Part shown: one piece after another, positions 10,240 through 16,964 of the stretch
Position numbering within the stretch: the first letter of the stretch is position 1
How the letters are laid out: every line of letters begins with the position of its first letter
Assembly (NCBI RefSeq): GCF_021513175.1
Contig: NZ_CP090953.1
Coordinates: forward strand, 1 to 64,000
Origin: Sphingomonas sp. S2-65
GTDB lineage: Bacteria; Pseudomonadota; Alphaproteobacteria; Sphingomonadales; Sphingomonadaceae
Length of the DNA stretch: 64,000 nucleotides
Direction of reading: 5' to 3'
Program-made: the position numbers and the translations under genes
Notes under the pieces: generated by a model
Told to the model about the DNA's origin: nothing
The model's input: the letters and a program-made list of their open reading frames with translations, nothing else
Database searches by the model: none

Positions 10240-10256
10240 CTTCAGCGGAGGTGGCA

Positions 10257-10718
10257 TTGCCCAAGCTCGATCTCGACACAATCCCGCAAACCAATGCGAC
10301 CGGCTACCCCGCGCCGTTCGACGCGGCGGTGCAGGGACGCTGGTACCGGCGGCTGGCGCCGGCGAGCGGGCTTACCGAGATGGGCGCAAGTCATGTGGTG
10401 CTGAAGCCGGGCGCCTGGTCGTCGCAGCGGCACTGGCATGAACATGAGGACGAACTGGTGGTGATAATCGCCGGTGAGGCAGTGCTGGTCGAGGATGGCG
10501 GCGAGACGGTGCTGCGGCCCGGCGATGTCGCAGCCTTTACCAAGGGCGTGCGCGACGGGCACCAGCTTCAGAACCGAAGCGAGGCGGACTGCGTGTTCGT
10601 GGCGATCAGTGCCGGGGCACGAGGCTCTGGGGAATATTCGGACATCGACATGTACTTCAACGCCGATGGTTATTTTCACAAGGACGGCACGCCATACCCG
10701 ACGCAGCGGCTACCCTAA
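10257..10718 (+). CDS. Cupin-domain protein
   Basis: Single-domain cupin of about 153 residues. The TTG at 10257 is preferred because GGAGG (10246-10250) then has a 6-base spacing; a GTG at 10251 is also in frame but touches that Shine-Dalgarno. Cupin motif 1 is seen in SQRHWHEHEDELVVIIAGEA (HxH plus Glu) and motif 2 in LRPGDVAAFTKGVRDGHQLQN. Cupins of this type bind a divalent metal, but the substrate is unknown. Divergent from dapE, convergent with the GST gene. Confidence 0.8.
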   Translation: MPKLDLDTIPQTNATGYPAPFDAAVQGRWYRRLAPASGLTEMGASHVVLKPGAWSSQRHWHEHEDELVVIIAGEAVLVEDGGETVLRPGDVAAFTKGVRDGHQLQNRSEADCVFVAISAGARGSGEYSDIDMYFNADGYFHKDGTPYPTQRLP

Positions 10719-11440: not shown

Positions 11441-12085
11441 CTAGCTGATGGCTTCCAGAACGGCGGCGCGCAGCTCGGGCAGGCCCATACCCTTCTCGCT
11501 GGATGTGGCGATGACGTCGGGGTGCGCGGCAGGGCGCTTGCGTGCCTCGGCCTCGGTCTGCGCGCGGACTTCGGCAAGGTCGGTGGCCTTGATCTTGTCG
11601 GTCTTGGTGAGGACGATGTGATAGCTGACGGCCGCGGTGTCGAGCATGTCGAGGATCTCGCGGTCCACGTCCTTGATGCCGTGGCGCGAGTCGATCAGCA
11701 CGAACGCACGCTTGAGCGACTGGCGCCCGCGCAGGAAGTCGTTCACCAGATAGCGCCACTTGCGGAGCAGATCCTTGGGCGCCTTGGCGAAGCCGTAGCC
11801 GGGCATGTCGACCAAGCGGAAGCGCAAGGGCTCGCCGACGTCGAAGAAGTTGAGCTCCTGCGTGCGGCCGGGGGTGTTCGACGTACGCGCCAAGCCGTTG
11901 CGGTTGGTCAGCGCGTTCAGCAGCGACGATTTGCCGACATTGGAGCGGCCAGCGACTGCAACTTCCGGAACGATCGGGTCAGGAAGGTGCTTCAGCTCGG
12001 GAGCGGACTTCAGGAACGTGACCGGCCCGGCGAAGATCTTGCGGGCGTTCTCGATCGCCTCCGGGTTCAGATTGTCTGCGTTCAC
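11441..12085 (-). CDS. engB: Ribosome-biogenesis GTP-binding protein EngB (YsxC/YihA)
   Basis: Essential small GTPase for large-subunit assembly. The GTG at 12085 gives 214 residues (VNADNLNPEAIEN...), with GGAGAA seven bases upstream; the longer frame to 12172 lacks a good site. G-motifs: G1 GRSNVGKSS, G2 region TSNTPGRTQ, G3 DMPGYGFA, G4 TKTDK. In many alphaproteobacteria engB lies directly after yidC; here about 3.1 kb of foreign-looking genes separates them. Confidence 0.94.
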   Translation of the reverse strand: MNADNLNPEAIENARKIFAGPVTFLKSAPELKHLPDPIVPEVAVAGRSNVGKSSLLNALTNRNGLARTSNTPGRTQELNFFDVGEPLRFRLVDMPGYGFAKAPKDLLRKWRYLVNDFLRGRQSLKRAFVLIDSRHGIKDVDREILDMLDTAAVSYHIVLTKTDKIKATDLAEVRAQTEAEARKRPAAHPDVIATSSEKGMGLPELRAAVLEAIS

Positions 12086-12329
12086 GTGCCAGTTCTCCCG
12101 CGCCGCTTTACGAGCGAAGTGACTGCGCTGCCTAGACCAAAACTGGGGTGCCGGGAACGGAGCCTTCCTCACGCCGGCGAGGGCCTATTGGCAGGATATC
12201 CGCCCGGAGTCAACTATGATGACAGTCAACTCGTCCTGCCACATAGATCTATTCACCGTAAAACCTTGTAAATAGCCTGATGAATTCGAATCATTGCAAC
12301 GAATTGACGGCGTGATAGGCTCCTTGCGC

Positions 12330-12338
12330 TGGTATAGA
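12330..12338 (+). promoter_or_regulatory. Candidate extended -10 promoter for the small peptide gene
   Basis: TGGTATAGA matches an extended -10 (TGn-TATAnn). It would start RNA near 12345, just upstream of GGAG (12352-12355) and the ATG at 12363. A TTGACG at 12304 is too far (23 bases) to be a normal -35. The region 12190-12362 is visibly AT-richer than its neighbours. Inferred by eye only. Confidence 0.4.
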
Positions 12339-12362
12339 CCAGCAAACTTGTGGAGCAACGCG

Positions 12363-12497
12363 ATGGGACAGATTGATCTCGAAGAAATTCCGCAGTTGGA
12401 TGTCAAAGTGCTGTTCGACACGGAAGAAGCACATTCCCACAACGTCATACATCCGATCTTCATTCCTATCCTGATCGGCACGGCTATCATCGTGTAG
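12363..12497 (+). CDS. 44-residue peptide, leader-like N-terminus and hydrophobic C-terminus (unrecognised)
   Basis: Starts at ATG 12363 with GGAG seven bases upstream; stop TAG at 12495-12497. The first about 22 residues are acidic (MGQIDLEEIPQLDVKVLFD...), followed by a His-rich turn EAHSHNVIH and a strongly hydrophobic tail PIFIPILIGTAIIV. There is no Cys, Ser-rich core or GG motif. It is followed at once by a strong hairpin terminator and then three co-directional genes. The layout resembles a peptide precursor expressed above its processing genes (RiPP-like), but a single-pass membrane microprotein is equally possible. No family recognised. Confidence 0.6.
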   Translation: MGQIDLEEIPQLDVKVLFDTEEAHSHNVIHPIFIPILIGTAIIV

Positions 12498-12505
12498 CAG
12501 TGATC

Positions 12506-12540
12506 GAGCTCGCGGCATCATGCATGTCGCGAGCTCTTTT
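12506..12540 (+). terminator. Rho-independent terminator/attenuator after the peptide gene
   Basis: GAGCTCGCG (12506-12514) pairs with CGCGAGCTC (12528-12536). The stem extends through one G-U pair and CAT/ATG to 13 bp with a 5-base loop, and is followed by TTTT (12537-12540). The short U-tract suggests it could be leaky, so the downstream genes would be expressed at a lower level from the same promoter. Confidence 0.8.
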
Positions 12541-12553
12541 CGCGGAGGCGTTC

Positions 12554-13525
12554 ATGCGTATCGATGCTGGCTATAGAGACTTTCTCGTATCTGACGGGCC
12601 CCTGAAGTATCTCGTCCGCAAGCTGGAGGAGATGAAGGCGTTCAGATCGACTCCGTCGATCGAGGCGCTACTCTCCGTTGCGCGTGACTCAAGCGGCGCT
12701 CGCCATGTGGAAGCGATCGATGAAGCAATTCGGCAGTTTCTTTCAACAGACACTAGCTTCGTTCTGGAGTCGCTGAAGAAATGGATACTCGAAGCTGTAG
12801 AGGACGATAAGGCGCTGCCGCCGTTCAGGGATGCGATAGAGTATGACGAAGGGCTGTTCCACAACGTCAACATCCTGAAGCGGGATGGGATCAGTATCAC
12901 TGCCAGCTCCATCTCTGAGCAGGACATTGCAGCTAGCCGGGAACGCGGTGTCGGTACGCGGGTAGTGTTCTCCGGGCAGCGCGTGTTCTTCAAGTTCCTG
13001 AAGGCCGATAATGCCGTCGTCACGATTTGGGAGTGTGATCCGTTCAGCGACGCCAGCGAATTCGGCGCGCTGCGGTGCACGGGGTCGCGCGACGTTCGAG
13101 TGAGCGCCGGCGACACGCTTGAAGTCGACGGTACCCGCGAGAGCCTGTCGTTCGGAAGCTGCGAGAGTACGGCAGTGTTCCTGCAGGTGGAGAATGTCGT
13201 GCGGGACGTCGGCACATCGGTGGCATTCCACCGCGAAACAGGCGCGTTCATGGAAACCTATCCCACGGACCGAACCGCGTTGCGACGCATGGTGATGTGC
13301 TCTGCGCTGAAGCACATGGGCGCGAGTAGCCGGCTGGCCACGCTGCCCGCGCCGGCGCGTGAGGGTCCGTTCTATTTGCGCTGGCACTTCGCGCGCGAGA
13401 CCGTCGCGGCAGCGCCCGAGCGCAGCGTGGCGTTGCTGGAGTCCCTCGCCGAGGATGATGCGAGCCCCACTGTCCGTCGGGCAGCCTCCGCCACCCTGAC
13501 CATGCTTGCGAAGAGGAGGGCGTGA
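12554..13525 (+). CDS. Unrecognised protein with cupin-like middle and HEAT-like C-terminus
   Basis: 323 residues from ATG 12554 (MRIDAGYRDFLV...), with GGAGG six bases upstream; an in-frame GTG at 12500 lies in the terminator stem and is rejected. Residues about 1-90 look alpha-helical. Residues about 100-235 look beta-rich (FHNVNILKRDGISITASS, RVVFSGQRVFFKFLKAD, RVSAGDTLEVDG) like a double-stranded beta-helix but without a complete HxH...E...H set. Residues about 270-323 resemble an armadillo/HEAT repeat. Ends one base before the next gene. Base composition is milder than neighbouring housekeeping genes. Function unknown. Confidence 0.7.
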   Translation: MRIDAGYRDFLVSDGPLKYLVRKLEEMKAFRSTPSIEALLSVARDSSGARHVEAIDEAIRQFLSTDTSFVLESLKKWILEAVEDDKALPPFRDAIEYDEGLFHNVNILKRDGISITASSISEQDIAASRERGVGTRVVFSGQRVFFKFLKADNAVVTIWECDPFSDASEFGALRCTGSRDVRVSAGDTLEVDGTRESLSFGSCESTAVFLQVENVVRDVGTSVAFHRETGAFMETYPTDRTALRRMVMCSALKHMGASSRLATLPAPAREGPFYLRWHFARETVAAAPERSVALLESLAEDDASPTVRRAASATLTMLAKRRA

Positions 13526-13526
13526 C

Positions 13527-14411
13527 ATGTCGCTAGACATCCCGGTTCAGACCGACCGGCAGCTCGGATTGGATGAATTCCAGGAGCTGTTCCGCGACGG
13601 CAAGTACGATGCGCGCGATTCGGAGTCGTTGAAGGACGCCGCCGAAATTTTGCTGGCGCTGGGCAACAACAAGAGCTTCCTTCCCGATCTGATCATGAAG
13701 GAACTGACCGACGACATGTCGGGGCAGCGCGACAACTTCTATGGTCCCTCGGTCATCAAGCTGGGGCATCCGACGGACAGCACCGTGATGCGTGCGAACA
13801 TTTGGGCCTCGGCGACGGACGAAGATTATCGGCGCTCACCCAACGCCTTTATCTACGGCGTGCCGCACGACCATAACTTCAATTTCCTGACGGTCGGATA
13901 TTGGGGTCCCGGGTATAAGAGCCGGTACTACGAATTCGATTATGAGAATGTCGAAGGATATACCGGGGAAGAAGTTCGCATTCGGGAAGTCGCGTTCAAG
14001 TCGCTAGGGTTAGATTCGGTGATGCTCTACCGGGCCCATGTCGACATCCATTCTCAGCTTCCTCCAGATAAGTTATCGATCACTTTGAACGTGATGGAGT
14101 CCGGCCCCGAGCACCATTACAAAGATCAATATATGTTCGACGGCGAGGGCGGAAGCGTTGCGGTGGTCCTGAGTTCGCGTTGTTCGCCGAACCTGTTCGA
14201 AGTCGCGGCCTCGTTCGGCGACGCTGAGATCCAAGAGGCCTTGGTCTTCATCAGCAAGCGCCACCAGAGCGAATATACGCGGGCGTGCGCGCTGCGCTCG
14301 GCGCTTCGGGGCGCGGCCGACGAGGACGAAGTAGAGCGCCTAGTCGCCTATGGGATGAACTCGAATTGCGGTGGGCTGCGGCAGGCCGTCCATCGTTTCC
14401 TCGCCCATTGA
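13527..14411 (+). CDS. Unrecognised protein with a cupin-like metal-site pattern
   Basis: 294 residues from ATG 13527 with GAGGAGGG six bases upstream; an upstream in-frame ATG at 13506 overlaps the previous gene and is less likely. The central segment holds His114-Asp-His116 (GVPHDHNFNFLTVGYWGPGY), Glu136 (YYEFDYEN) and His171/His175 (RAHVDIHSQLPPD), an order and spacing reminiscent of cupin-type Fe(II) oxygenases. The C-terminal 50 residues look helical. Stop overlaps the next ATG (TGATG), implying translational coupling. A metal-dependent oxygenase is my inference; no family is confirmed. Confidence 0.65.
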   Translation: MSLDIPVQTDRQLGLDEFQELFRDGKYDARDSESLKDAAEILLALGNNKSFLPDLIMKELTDDMSGQRDNFYGPSVIKLGHPTDSTVMRANIWASATDEDYRRSPNAFIYGVPHDHNFNFLTVGYWGPGYKSRYYEFDYENVEGYTGEEVRIREVAFKSLGLDSVMLYRAHVDIHSQLPPDKLSITLNVMESGPEHHYKDQYMFDGEGGSVAVVLSSRCSPNLFEVAASFGDAEIQEALVFISKRHQSEYTRACALRSALRGAADEDEVERLVAYGMNSNCGGLRQAVHRFLAH

Positions 14412-15328
14412 TGGCAGGGGCGATGGATCAGCGTGTCTGCATCGTCACTGGGGGCACGCGAGGACTGGGGTGGGCGGCCGTCCAGATGCTGGCGGAACAA
14501 GGCCACACCGTCATCGCCGCGTCTCGCCATCCCGAAGCGGCGCAGCCCGCCATCGACGCCCTAGTGCACAGGGGTGTATCCGGTGCCGTGCAGGCCATGC
14601 CGCTGGATCTCGGTTCGGCGGCTTCGGTCCGGAGCTTCGCGGCGGAGTGCCAAAGCCGGTTCGGGCGCCTCGACGTGTTGATCAACAATGCCGGTGTGAT
14701 CACGCGAAACCGCGAACGTACTCAAGATGGTCACGAGAGGCAGTTCGGCGTCAATCACCTAGGGCATTTCCTGCTGACGCGCGAGCTGATGCCGATGCTG
14801 GCCGAACGCGCCGATCCGCGCGTCGTGATCGTGTCTTCCGCCATGCACCGCGCCGGAGAGATCGCGTGGGACGACCTCAACCTCGAGCACGGCTACGGGA
14901 TGATCCGCGCCTATGCGCAGAGCAAGCTGGCCAATGTGATGTTCGCGGTTGAGTTGGCCCGCCGAGCGCCGGCGCTGAGCGTCAATGCGCTGCATCCAGG
15001 TGGCGTGACCACCGGCATATTGCGTGAGGCGCCGTTGATGCGCGCGCTTGCCTGGCCCTTTTCGAAGCGCCCGGCCACTGCAGCACGCGCTGTGATCCGG
15101 CTAGCCACCGATCCCACGCTTGCCGGCGTGAGCGGGCGCTATTTCGAAGGTATGAAAGAGACACGTCCCGCACCGGCCGCGCGCGATGCGGCCAGTGCGG
15201 GACGTCTTTGGGGCATCAGCGAGGCACTGACCGAATTGCCGCGCCAGAAGTCTAGCGTTTCGAAGGCGCCGGCTGCTGTTTCAACGCCGGGTGACGCGAA
15301 TACAGCCATTGCTGCTGCAGGATCGTGA
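14411..15328 (+). CDS. Short-chain dehydrogenase/reductase with 3' overlap into yidC
   Basis: 305 residues from ATG 14411, coupled to the previous stop; ATG 14423 is an alternative. NAD(P)-binding motif TGGTRGLG, NNAG, and catalytic Tyr-x3-Lys in YAQSKLANVMF mark a classical SDR similar to retinol-dehydrogenase-like enzymes. The conserved fold seems to end near LWGISEALTELP. The last about 25 residues (...KAPAAVSTPGDANTAIAAAGS) are read from the antisense strand of the yidC 3' end. Substrate unknown; it may act on the product of the two upstream proteins. Confidence 0.85.
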   Translation: MAGAMDQRVCIVTGGTRGLGWAAVQMLAEQGHTVIAASRHPEAAQPAIDALVHRGVSGAVQAMPLDLGSAASVRSFAAECQSRFGRLDVLINNAGVITRNRERTQDGHERQFGVNHLGHFLLTRELMPMLAERADPRVVIVSSAMHRAGEIAWDDLNLEHGYGMIRAYAQSKLANVMFAVELARRAPALSVNALHPGGVTTGILREAPLMRALAWPFSKRPATAARAVIRLATDPTLAGVSGRYFEGMKETRPAPAARDAASAGRLWGISEALTELPRQKSSVSKAPAAVSTPGDANTAIAAAGS

Positions 15329-16964
15329 GTACGTTCGACGTGATCCAATAGACCTGAAGGCCGACTGCAAACGGCGCCATCAGGAACATCATCATCCAGG
15401 GCATGATCATCATGATCTGCTTCTGCACCTCATCGGTGGAGGTCGGATTCAGCTTGAACTGGAAATACATCGAGATCCCCAAAACGATCGGAATCACGCC
15501 AATCGCGATGAAATGCGGCGGGGTGAAGTCCAGCAGGCCGAAAAGGTTCAGCGGCGTGAGCGGATCCGGCGCGGAAAGATCCTTGATCCACCCGAAGAAG
15601 CTCTGGTGCCGCATCTCGATGGTGAGCAGCAGAACCTTATACAGTGCGAACATGATTGGGATCTGGAGGAGCATCGGCAGGCACCCGGCGACCGGGTTTG
15701 CCTTTTCGTCCTTGTACAGTTTCAGGATTTCCTGCTGCTGACGCTGCTTGTCCTCCTTGTGACGATCCTGAATAGCCTTCATCTTCGGCTGGATCGCCCG
15801 CATCTTCGCCATCGAGGCGAACTGCTTCTGCGCGATCGGGAACAGCAGCGCGCGGATGGTGATCGTCAGCAGGATGATCGCGACACCGAAATTGCCGACG
15901 AGGCGGAACAGCCAATCGAGATAATAGAAGATCGGCTGTTCGATGACGCCGAACCAGCCCCAATCGATCGCGCGGTCGAACTGCACGATGCCGAGTTTGT
16001 CCTGATACGCCTCAAGCAGCTTCACTTCCTTCGCGCCGGCGAAGAAGCGGCTGGAATAGCTGATCTTCTGGCCCGGCTGCAGGCTGAGCGGCTGGGCGAG
16101 CTGATAATCGGCCTGATAGGACTGAGCAGCATTGCCGCGGTGCTGAAGCTGCACCGGCACGCGCTGATCGGGGACGAGCGCTGTCAGCCAGTAATGGTCC
16201 GAATAGCCGACCCAGCCGCCGGTGGTGGCGAGCTGCTCCGGCGTGCTCTCGATGTCCTTCCAGTTGATATAGTTGGCAGCACCGTCCGCGACTGCGACGG
16301 GCCCGACATGCGCGGCCCATTGATCGGCATCGGTCGAGCGGCTTGCGCGCGAGACGAGCGCGTACGGCGTGACCGACACCGGGGCGCTGCCGGTATTGGC
16401 AACGGTCTGGCGGATGCCGAACATGTAGTTCTCGTCCACCGACAGCTCGATCCGGAAGATCTGGCTGGTGGCGTTGGACGCCGTCAACGTGACGGGAGTG
16501 GTGGGGGTGAGCTTGGTGCCGCTTGCCTGCCACACCGTGTCGGGACCCGGCGCCTGGGCACCGGCCCCTTGCCAGCCAAACTGCGCGTAATACGCGCCAG
16601 TGGCGCCGCCCGGAGAGAGCAGGCGGATCGGCGGCGAGTTCTTCGCGACGGTCTCGTCATATTTCGCAAGGACGAGATCGTCGAGACGGGCCCCCTTGAG
16701 GTTGATCGACCCGCGGAGCGCCGGAGTCTCGATCTGCACCCGAGGACTTTCGGCCAGGACGATCTGGCGGTCGCGCAGCGCCTGCGGCGAATCGGCCGTG
16801 GGGTCGGCGCCGGGCTGCGGCACGACCTTGGTCTTGCCGCCTTCGATCTGCGTCGGCGCGGGGTTCTGCTGCGGGAAGATCCAGTGCTGGATCTTGGGCC
16901 AGCCGAACAGGATCAGCGCGGCCAGCACCGCGAAGATCAGAAAATTCTTCTTGTCGTCTTTCAC
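15252..16964 (-). CDS. yidC: Membrane protein insertase YidC
   Basis: Inserts and folds inner-membrane proteins with or without SecYEG. 570 residues: N-terminal membrane anchor (FLIFAVLAALILFGWPKI), a large periplasmic beta domain (about 60-350), and the C-terminal Oxa1-like core with five hydrophobic segments (GNFGVAIILLTITIRALLF; GCLPMLLQIPIMFALYKVL). Directly downstream of yidD in the rpmH-rnpA-yidD-yidC order. The 3' end is overlapped by a convergent dehydrogenase gene, and engB, its usual neighbour, is about 3.1 kb away. Confidence 0.96.
   Translation of the reverse strand: MKDDKKNFLIFAVLAALILFGWPKIQHWIFPQQNPAPTQIEGGKTKVVPQPGADPTADSPQALRDRQIVLAESPRVQIETPALRGSINLKGARLDDLVLAKYDETVAKNSPPIRLLSPGGATGAYYAQFGWQGAGAQAPGPDTVWQASGTKLTPTTPVTLTASNATSQIFRIELSVDENYMFGIRQTVANTGSAPVSVTPYALVSRASRSTDADQWAAHVGPVAVADGAANYINWKDIESTPEQLATTGGWVGYSDHYWLTALVPDQRVPVQLQHRGNAAQSYQADYQLAQPLSLQPGQKISYSSRFFAGAKEVKLLEAYQDKLGIVQFDRAIDWGWFGVIEQPIFYYLDWLFRLVGNFGVAIILLTITIRALLFPIAQKQFASMAKMRAIQPKMKAIQDRHKEDKQRQQQEILKLYKDEKANPVAGCLPMLLQIPIMFALYKVLLLTIEMRHQSFFGWIKDLSAPDPLTPLNLFGLLDFTPPHFIAIGVIPIVLGISMYFQFKLNPTSTDEVQKQIMMIMPWMMMFLMAPFAVGLQVYWITSNVLTILQQQWLYSRHPALKQQPAPSKR

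What the first reader, a model, noticed from the sequence alone, without database searches (positions are those of the whole stretch)
12190..15330. Foreign cassette between engB and yidC: peptide, two cupin-like proteins and a dehydrogenase
Seen: four co-directional, tightly spaced genes (gaps of 1 base or overlapping TGATG between the last three) in an AT-richer block between engB and yidC, both on the opposite strand. Known: yidC and engB are neighbours in many alphaproteobacteria. Inferred: a laterally acquired functional unit in which a short peptide (12363-12497) may be modified by one or two Fe(II)-oxygenase-like proteins and a short-chain dehydrogenase. No transporter or radical-SAM enzyme is present, so it does not fit a RiPP class I know.
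Basis: partly seen in the sequence, partly recalled or inferred. Interest (0 to 1): 0.75.

Follow-up and report, generated by a model that had tools for sequence, protein, structure and literature searches.

The report
Peptide operon with oxygenase-like twin proteins
A short peptide gene sits next to the gene of an iron-oxygenase-like protein and that protein's apparently inactive twin, and the same trio turns up in dozens of related bacteria, which suggests an undescribed way of making modified peptides.

Summary
The cassette is real, but its recurring unit is three genes, not four: a 44-aa peptide (12363-12497), protein B (12554-13525) and protein C (13527-14411). The dehydrogenase does not recur. 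In 79 genome loci found by searching for C, an ORF in B's position precedes C in 78 (the last contig starts inside C), and a related ~40-58-aa peptide precedes B in 75 (three of the other four are cut by contig ends). The peptides are under purifying selection and tandemly repeated in some genomes (five in a Rheinheimera). C is predicted with high confidence to have the thiol-dioxygenase cupin fold, with an invariant HDH...DxHxQ set (three likely iron-ligand histidines) and a HEAT-like C-terminal part. B has the same architecture without conserved histidines: an apparent pseudoenzyme. The six gammaproteobacterial loci and an Alteromonas plasmid carry MacB-type/ABC transporter genes nearby; four of the six also kinase and LytTR-regulator relatives. 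Best reading: a RiPP-like peptide modified by a B-C oxidase, exported and sensed in some lineages. Pfam and NCBIfam name neither C nor the peptide (only HEAT repeats match in some B and C), and ten paper searches listed no description. The chemistry is untested.

The parts
12363..12497 (+). precursor-like peptide, 44 aa, hydrophobic C-terminal half
   Evidence: GGAG ribosome site; related peptides upstream of B in 75 of 79 C loci; purifying selection in 12 pairs of relatives (the window's own peptide was not in those pairs)
12554..13525 (+). protein B, 323 aa: N-terminal helices, cupin barrel without conserved histidines, C-terminal HEAT-like helices (putative pseudoenzyme partner)
   Evidence: AlphaFold2 pLDDT 91.2; fold matches; alignment A2 of 62; profile similarity to C over 148 columns
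13527..14411 (+). protein C, 294 aa: cupin with thiol-dioxygenase fold, H114-D115-H116 ... D173-x-H175-x-Q177, and C-terminal HEAT-like helices (putative iron oxygenase)
14411..15328 (+). short-chain dehydrogenase, overlapping C by TGATG but not part of the recurring set
   Evidence: PF00106 6.4e-31; absent after C in L019; no match at E <= 1e-60 in 198 other family genomes

Best explanation
Peptide, B and C form a RiPP-like unit. Shown from sequence: the peptide is a conserved coding gene; B and C are constant neighbours; C is predicted to have a thiol-dioxygenase-type cupin with invariant putative iron ligands; B is predicted to be a related cupin without them. Inferred: B and C form a heteromeric enzyme in which B (and the HEAT-like parts) bind the peptide's more conserved N-terminal half (PKID...LPxLDTxxGxFGS in most relatives) and C uses Fe(II) and O2 to oxidise the peptide. 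No one C-terminal residue type explains all peptides (of 80: Cys in 21, Tyr among the last 28 residues in 61, neither in 6; the window's peptide has neither), so simple thiol oxidation is unlikely to be the common reaction; oxidation of the backbone or of a residue in the shared half is more likely. In gammaproteobacteria and some Sphingomonas the product is probably exported by HlyD/MacB-type transporters, and where LytS-type kinase and LytTR regulator genes adjoin it may be sensed.
For: Scan of 84,980 species genomes with the C alignment: 311 related stretches, 79 loci kept. ORF in B's position in 78 of 79; a B profile finds B even beside the most divergent C tested (L175, L176, L177: E 1e-10, 2e-5, 4e-7). 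Peptide in 75 of 79. omega 0.17 over 12 pairs; 0.12 in the first 23 codons, 0.20 after, difference not tested. Tandem precursors: five in L091, three candidates in L027, three in L043; double operons in L138, L140, L143. Folds. Transporter and two-component genes. Precedent: a cupin-like hydroxylase acts in a RiPP pathway (PMC12257519, passages read).
Against: No modification, product or metal has been observed. No leader-binding (RRE) domain of Pfam was matched in 62 B or 61 C. No processing peptidase was identified; I did not search for one systematically, and the only peptidase noted, a signal peptidase (PF10502), is in the shared chromosomal neighbourhood of 44 of 79 loci and looks like housekeeping. 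None of the 57 loci in that neighbourhood had a transporter match with our queries within the sequence held, unusual for a secreted RiPP. 200 of 295 genomes of the genus lack a C match. None of 61 C proteins matches the Pfam thiol-dioxygenase family CDO_I at E <= 0.01.
Confidence: 0.6

Rival explanations
1. The peptide is not a substrate but a small membrane, regulatory or toxin-like peptide, and B-C bind, sequester or sense it rather than oxidise it.
For: The C-terminal halves are strongly hydrophobic; B lacks a conserved metal site; most sphingomonad loci show no exporter with our queries.
Against: C keeps an invariant polar set around the putative metal site in 61 of 61 relatives, which binding alone would not require; precursors can be multiplied beside a single B-C pair (L091).
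Confidence: 0.18
2. B-C oxidise a small molecule or another protein; the upstream ORF is a leader ORF that controls their expression.
For: Known thiol dioxygenases mostly act on small thiols (general knowledge, recalled); the peptide gene precedes B directly.
Against: Selection acts on the amino-acid sequence; tandem copies, copies up to 726 bases from B, and copies before a second B-C pair; exporter and two-component genes near the trio in gammaproteobacteria.
Confidence: 0.12
3. One reading: the short-chain dehydrogenase is a further tailoring enzyme of the pathway in this strain.
For: It overlaps C by TGATG and shares its direction.
Against: Absent after C in L019 at the same site; no match at E <= 1e-60 in the other 198 of 199 family genomes; among the genes of the compared loci, the window's SDR clustered with SDRs of only three other loci.
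Confidence: 0.08

Closest known systems
Thiol dioxygenases (cysteine, 3-mercaptopropionate, mercaptosuccinate dioxygenase)
   Different: Extra C-terminal HEAT-like part, a histidine-less partner, an adjacent peptide; the second-shell Ser-His-Tyr of cysteine dioxygenase (recalled) is replaced by S/T186, N188, M/V/L/C190 in my hand alignment; 0 of 61 match Pfam CDO_I.
RiPP pathways with cupin-like hydroxylases, e.g. PbsQ of biphenomycin-like peptides (PMC12257519, passages read)
   Same: A cupin-fold oxygenase encoded beside a precursor peptide.
   Different: PbsQ is related to JmjC proteins and works in a pathway with an MNIO, an arginase and a B12 radical SAM enzyme; here only C and its histidine-less partner are constant.
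Daptides (hydrophobic RiPPs with several precursors; recalled)
   Same: Short leader-like N-terminus, hydrophobic C-terminal part, several precursors in some loci; one of 47 peptides touched NCBIfam daptide_Mpa2 at E 0.09.
   Different: That E-value is at chance level, and no daptide enzymes were noticed near the loci (not searched for by model).
HlyD/MacB exporters with LytS-LytTR two-component systems
   Same: Pfam HlyD, ABC_tran, MacB_PCD, FtsX, His_kinase, LytTR in genes near the trio in gammaproteobacteria.
   Different: These are companions in some lineages, not a constant part of the unit.

Membership tests
RiPP biosynthetic cluster | short precursor gene adjacent to the putative modifying enzymes | tested here: met
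   75 of 79 loci; three of the other four cut by contig ends
RiPP biosynthetic cluster | conserved N-terminal leader and freer C-terminal core | tested here: inconclusive
   omega 0.12 in the first 23 codons, 0.20 in the rest, 12 pairs: in the expected direction, small, not tested statistically; alignment A4
RiPP biosynthetic cluster | several precursors per enzyme set in some genomes | tested here: met
   L091 five (four identical) before one B-C; L027 three candidates (one at E 0.5); L043 two before one B-C
RiPP biosynthetic cluster | leader-binding RRE (PqqD-like) domain | tested here: inconclusive
   no such Pfam match among 62 B and 61 C at E <= 0.01; RREs often escape Pfam (recalled)
RiPP biosynthetic cluster | post-translational modification and leader removal | not testable with these tools
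   needs mass spectrometry
Thiol dioxygenase family (CDO_I, PF05995) | sequence match to the family model | tested here: not met
   0 of 61 C members at E <= 0.01; hhalign to six CDO_I-like ORFs, 0.4% probability (a small profile)
Thiol dioxygenase family (CDO_I, PF05995) | cupin fold of the thiol-dioxygenase type | tested here: met
   best Foldseek and VIA rows are thiol dioxygenases, on a predicted model
Thiol dioxygenase family (CDO_I, PF05995) | three-histidine iron site | tested here: inconclusive
   H114, H116, H175 identical in 61 of 61; geometry and metal not seen
Thiol dioxygenase family (CDO_I, PF05995) | Ser-His-Tyr second-shell motif (recalled) | tested here: not met
   N188 in 61 of 61, M/V/L/C at 190, by hand alignment
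Daptides | match to daptide precursor models | tested here: not met
   1 of 47 peptides, E 0.09; none of the others at E <= 0.1
Transposase (public name of some C relatives) | transposase domain | tested here: not met
   no Pfam or NCBIfam transposase match in 61 C members at E <= 0.01; cupin fold

The most novel reading that the evidence does not exclude
An undescribed RiPP class: an O2- and iron-dependent enzyme of thiol-dioxygenase fold, paired with its own catalytically dead paralogue, modifies hydrophobic ~40-58-aa peptides. It spans Sphingomonadales and Gammaproteobacteria; in many sphingomonads it is kept at one chromosomal place without a recognised exporter, which would fit an internal cofactor or signal rather than an antibiotic, while in gammaproteobacteria it is coupled to export and two-component sensing.
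Probability: 0.42. Interest if true: 0.85.

Novelty: new variant of a known kind. Interest (0 to 1): 0.7.

Why it matters
If true, it adds a peptide-modifying enzyme type (three-histidine cupin plus dead twin) to RiPP chemistry and gives a role to several hundred genes now called 'hypothetical' or 'transposase'. The small constant core (one peptide, two proteins) makes reconstitution in E. coli directly feasible.

Tried and rejected
Transposase: the public name of some relatives of C has no support. Defence system: no PADLOC match for the four proteins. Mobile element: C matched no phage record and one plasmid record (Alteromonas stellipolaris, 38% identity). Cysteine oxidation as the common reaction: 21 of 80 peptides have a Cys. 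Four-gene cassette with the dehydrogenase: see rivals. The promoter scan of 12100-15400 found no sigma-70-like site, not informative. hhalign of C and of B against six CDO_I-like ORFs gave nothing. VIA rows for B tie thiol dioxygenases with other cupins, so B's fold is 'cupin'; its kinship with C rests on architecture and a profile match over 148 columns in its second half (89.6%). The C-terminal helical parts were not searched alone. Papers: ten searches listed nothing describing this trio; one search listed 10 of 95 papers; only passages of PMC12257519 were read, all other papers were seen as listings with the start of the abstract. Papers outside that library were not covered.

Rows dropped or weak: of the 79 loci, L037, L052 and L055 are cut by contig ends in or before B; L097 shows no peptide and an odd N-terminal part of B. 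Of the 75 peptides, L068 (E 0.4, then 3e-5 with another profile) and L051 (E 0.004) are weak, and the profiles were seeded with peptides of some of these loci. A2 holds 62 B sequences (window, 61 from loci, two of them second copies); partial and some similar ones were left out. The gene caller missed genes in L047, L051, L068 and L091, so its cluster counts are lower bounds. Not independent, by equal contig length: L143 = L072, L178 = L043, L142 = L067.
Full report
What is there. Between engB and yidC, both on the minus strand, the plus strand carries a 44-aa peptide gene (12363-12497), B (12554-13525), C (13527-14411) and a short-chain dehydrogenase (14411-15328). B's better start is ATG 12554, five bases after GGAGG, aligned with the start of B in L019. 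The peptide-B-C block has the lowest GC of 124 sliding windows of 2050 bases in the 64 kb (58.8% against 66.5% overall). The peptide and C matched nothing in Pfam, NCBIfam or PADLOC; B only weak HEAT and one sub-cut-off NCBIfam hit. Across the families 30 of 62 B and 6 of 61 C match HEAT_2 at E <= 0.01.

The unit. C has 768 relatives at E <= 10 among 3746 candidates in the protein database (120 listed), some named 'transposase'. A scan of 84,980 species genomes with the C alignment found 311 related stretches; the best gave 79 loci, mostly Sphingomonadales, with Lysobacter, Tahibacter, two Alteromonas, Thalassotalea and Rheinheimera. An ORF in B's position ends near the start of C in 78 of 79; the last contig begins inside C. 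In a BLAST clustering of 88 stretches (79 loci, eight, the window) the B family holds 69, a lower bound because gene calling failed in some loci. A B profile finds B even beside the most divergent C tested (L175, L176, L177). Reverse test: in the same 61 relatives C is in 9 and B beyond its HEAT part in the same 9; four more genomes have only a short HEAT match. C matched in 95 of 295 genomes of the genus, 5 of 385 of a class sample (four of them in the own family) and 12 of 349 of a phylum sample (ten in the own family).

The peptide. A profile seeded with 14 peptides hits a small ORF in 70 of 79 loci (80 plus-strand peptides); L024, L033, L051, L080 and L073 add five; three of the other four are cut by contig ends and L097 has none that I could find. 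Most read M.LPKIDLxxLPxLDTxTGxFGS, a linker, then a hydrophobic tail often ending MVYVYD/E; others have ...EVGGPVCIGV...; the window and L019 have ...HPxFxPIL.... Over 12 pairs of related peptides omega is 0.17 (first 23 codons 0.12, rest 0.20). L091 (Rheinheimera MAG) has five in tandem, four identical; L027 three candidates; L043 three, of which two precede one B-C pair; L138, L140 and L143 (Sphingomonas) have two B-C pairs with two or three peptides. A database search with the peptide alignment gave 711 proteins at E <= 10 of 1044 candidates; the named ones among the 120 listed are 'hypothetical' or 'uncharacterized'. Of 18 further stretches of the genus, not all independent, 15 had a peptide hit.

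Neighbours. The six gammaproteobacterial loci (L027, L047, L051, L061, L068, L091) all have MacB-type or other ABC genes within the stretch held; four (L027, L047, L051, L091) also have relatives of the L091 kinase and LytTR regulator, confirmed by Pfam in L047 and L091; order and strand differ between loci. The Alteromonas stellipolaris plasmid copy (CP013927.1) has Yip1, HlyD, a MacB pair, two candidate peptides (one at E 0.04, one by eye), B, C, an ABC ATPase and an ABC-2 permease. Among the other 73 loci, L043, L072 and L075 have HlyD-MacB sets and L035 an ABC gene on the other strand. 57 of 79 loci share at least one of six flanking clusters (two 4HBT thioesterases, RuvX, DUF3089, signal peptidase, ACPS), and none of these 57 had a transporter match. 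Trans_reg_C regulators follow C in L011, L013, L044, L056 (Pfam) and in five more by clustering.

The window's copy. Its nearest relatives are 79% (Sphingomonas psychrotolerans) down to about 50% identical over C, while in the genus other genomes reach at most 43%. L019 is close (C 54%, B 46%, peptide 59%), L020 looser (38%, 27%, 32%). L019 has yidC-peptide-B-C-engB on one strand; L020 yidC-engB-peptide-B-C; the window has the trio and the dehydrogenase inverted between engB and yidC. No nearer relative could be seen in context.

Interpretation. Shown from sequence and prediction: the constant trio, a selected peptide, the folds, the missing histidines of B. Inferred: iron, oxygen, the peptide as substrate, B as recognition partner, export and sensing.

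Noticed in passing
window 15163-15205: An 18-pair GC-rich hairpin inside the 3' part of the dehydrogenase ORF, just beyond yidC's stop; probably the yidC terminator.
   Followed up: no
window 10251-10718: An ordinary Cupin_2 protein (PF07883 1.7e-16), not related to B and C by any search made here.
   Followed up: no
window 11441-16964, L019 5031-9521, L020 4140-8900: The window, its relative L019 and the looser relative L020 all have the trio at yidC/engB but in three different arrangements; a hot spot, or a link of a hydrophobic peptide with the insertase YidC, is unexplained.
   Followed up: partly
L091 6206-6911: Five tandem peptide genes, four encoding the same 39 aa, at about 146-base spacing.
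   Followed up: partly
P0002, P0027, P0084 and others: C relatives carry the name 'transposase' in public records, an apparent mis-annotation.
   Followed up: yes
L044 9391-10875, L076 9461-11101: A gene whose N-terminus looks like a TIR domain follows the operon and its regulator in Parasphingopyxis (by eye).
   Followed up: no
L043 4306-5515: A second peptide and B upstream of the main operon in Sphingomonas sp. Leaf33, with a different peptide type.
   Followed up: partly
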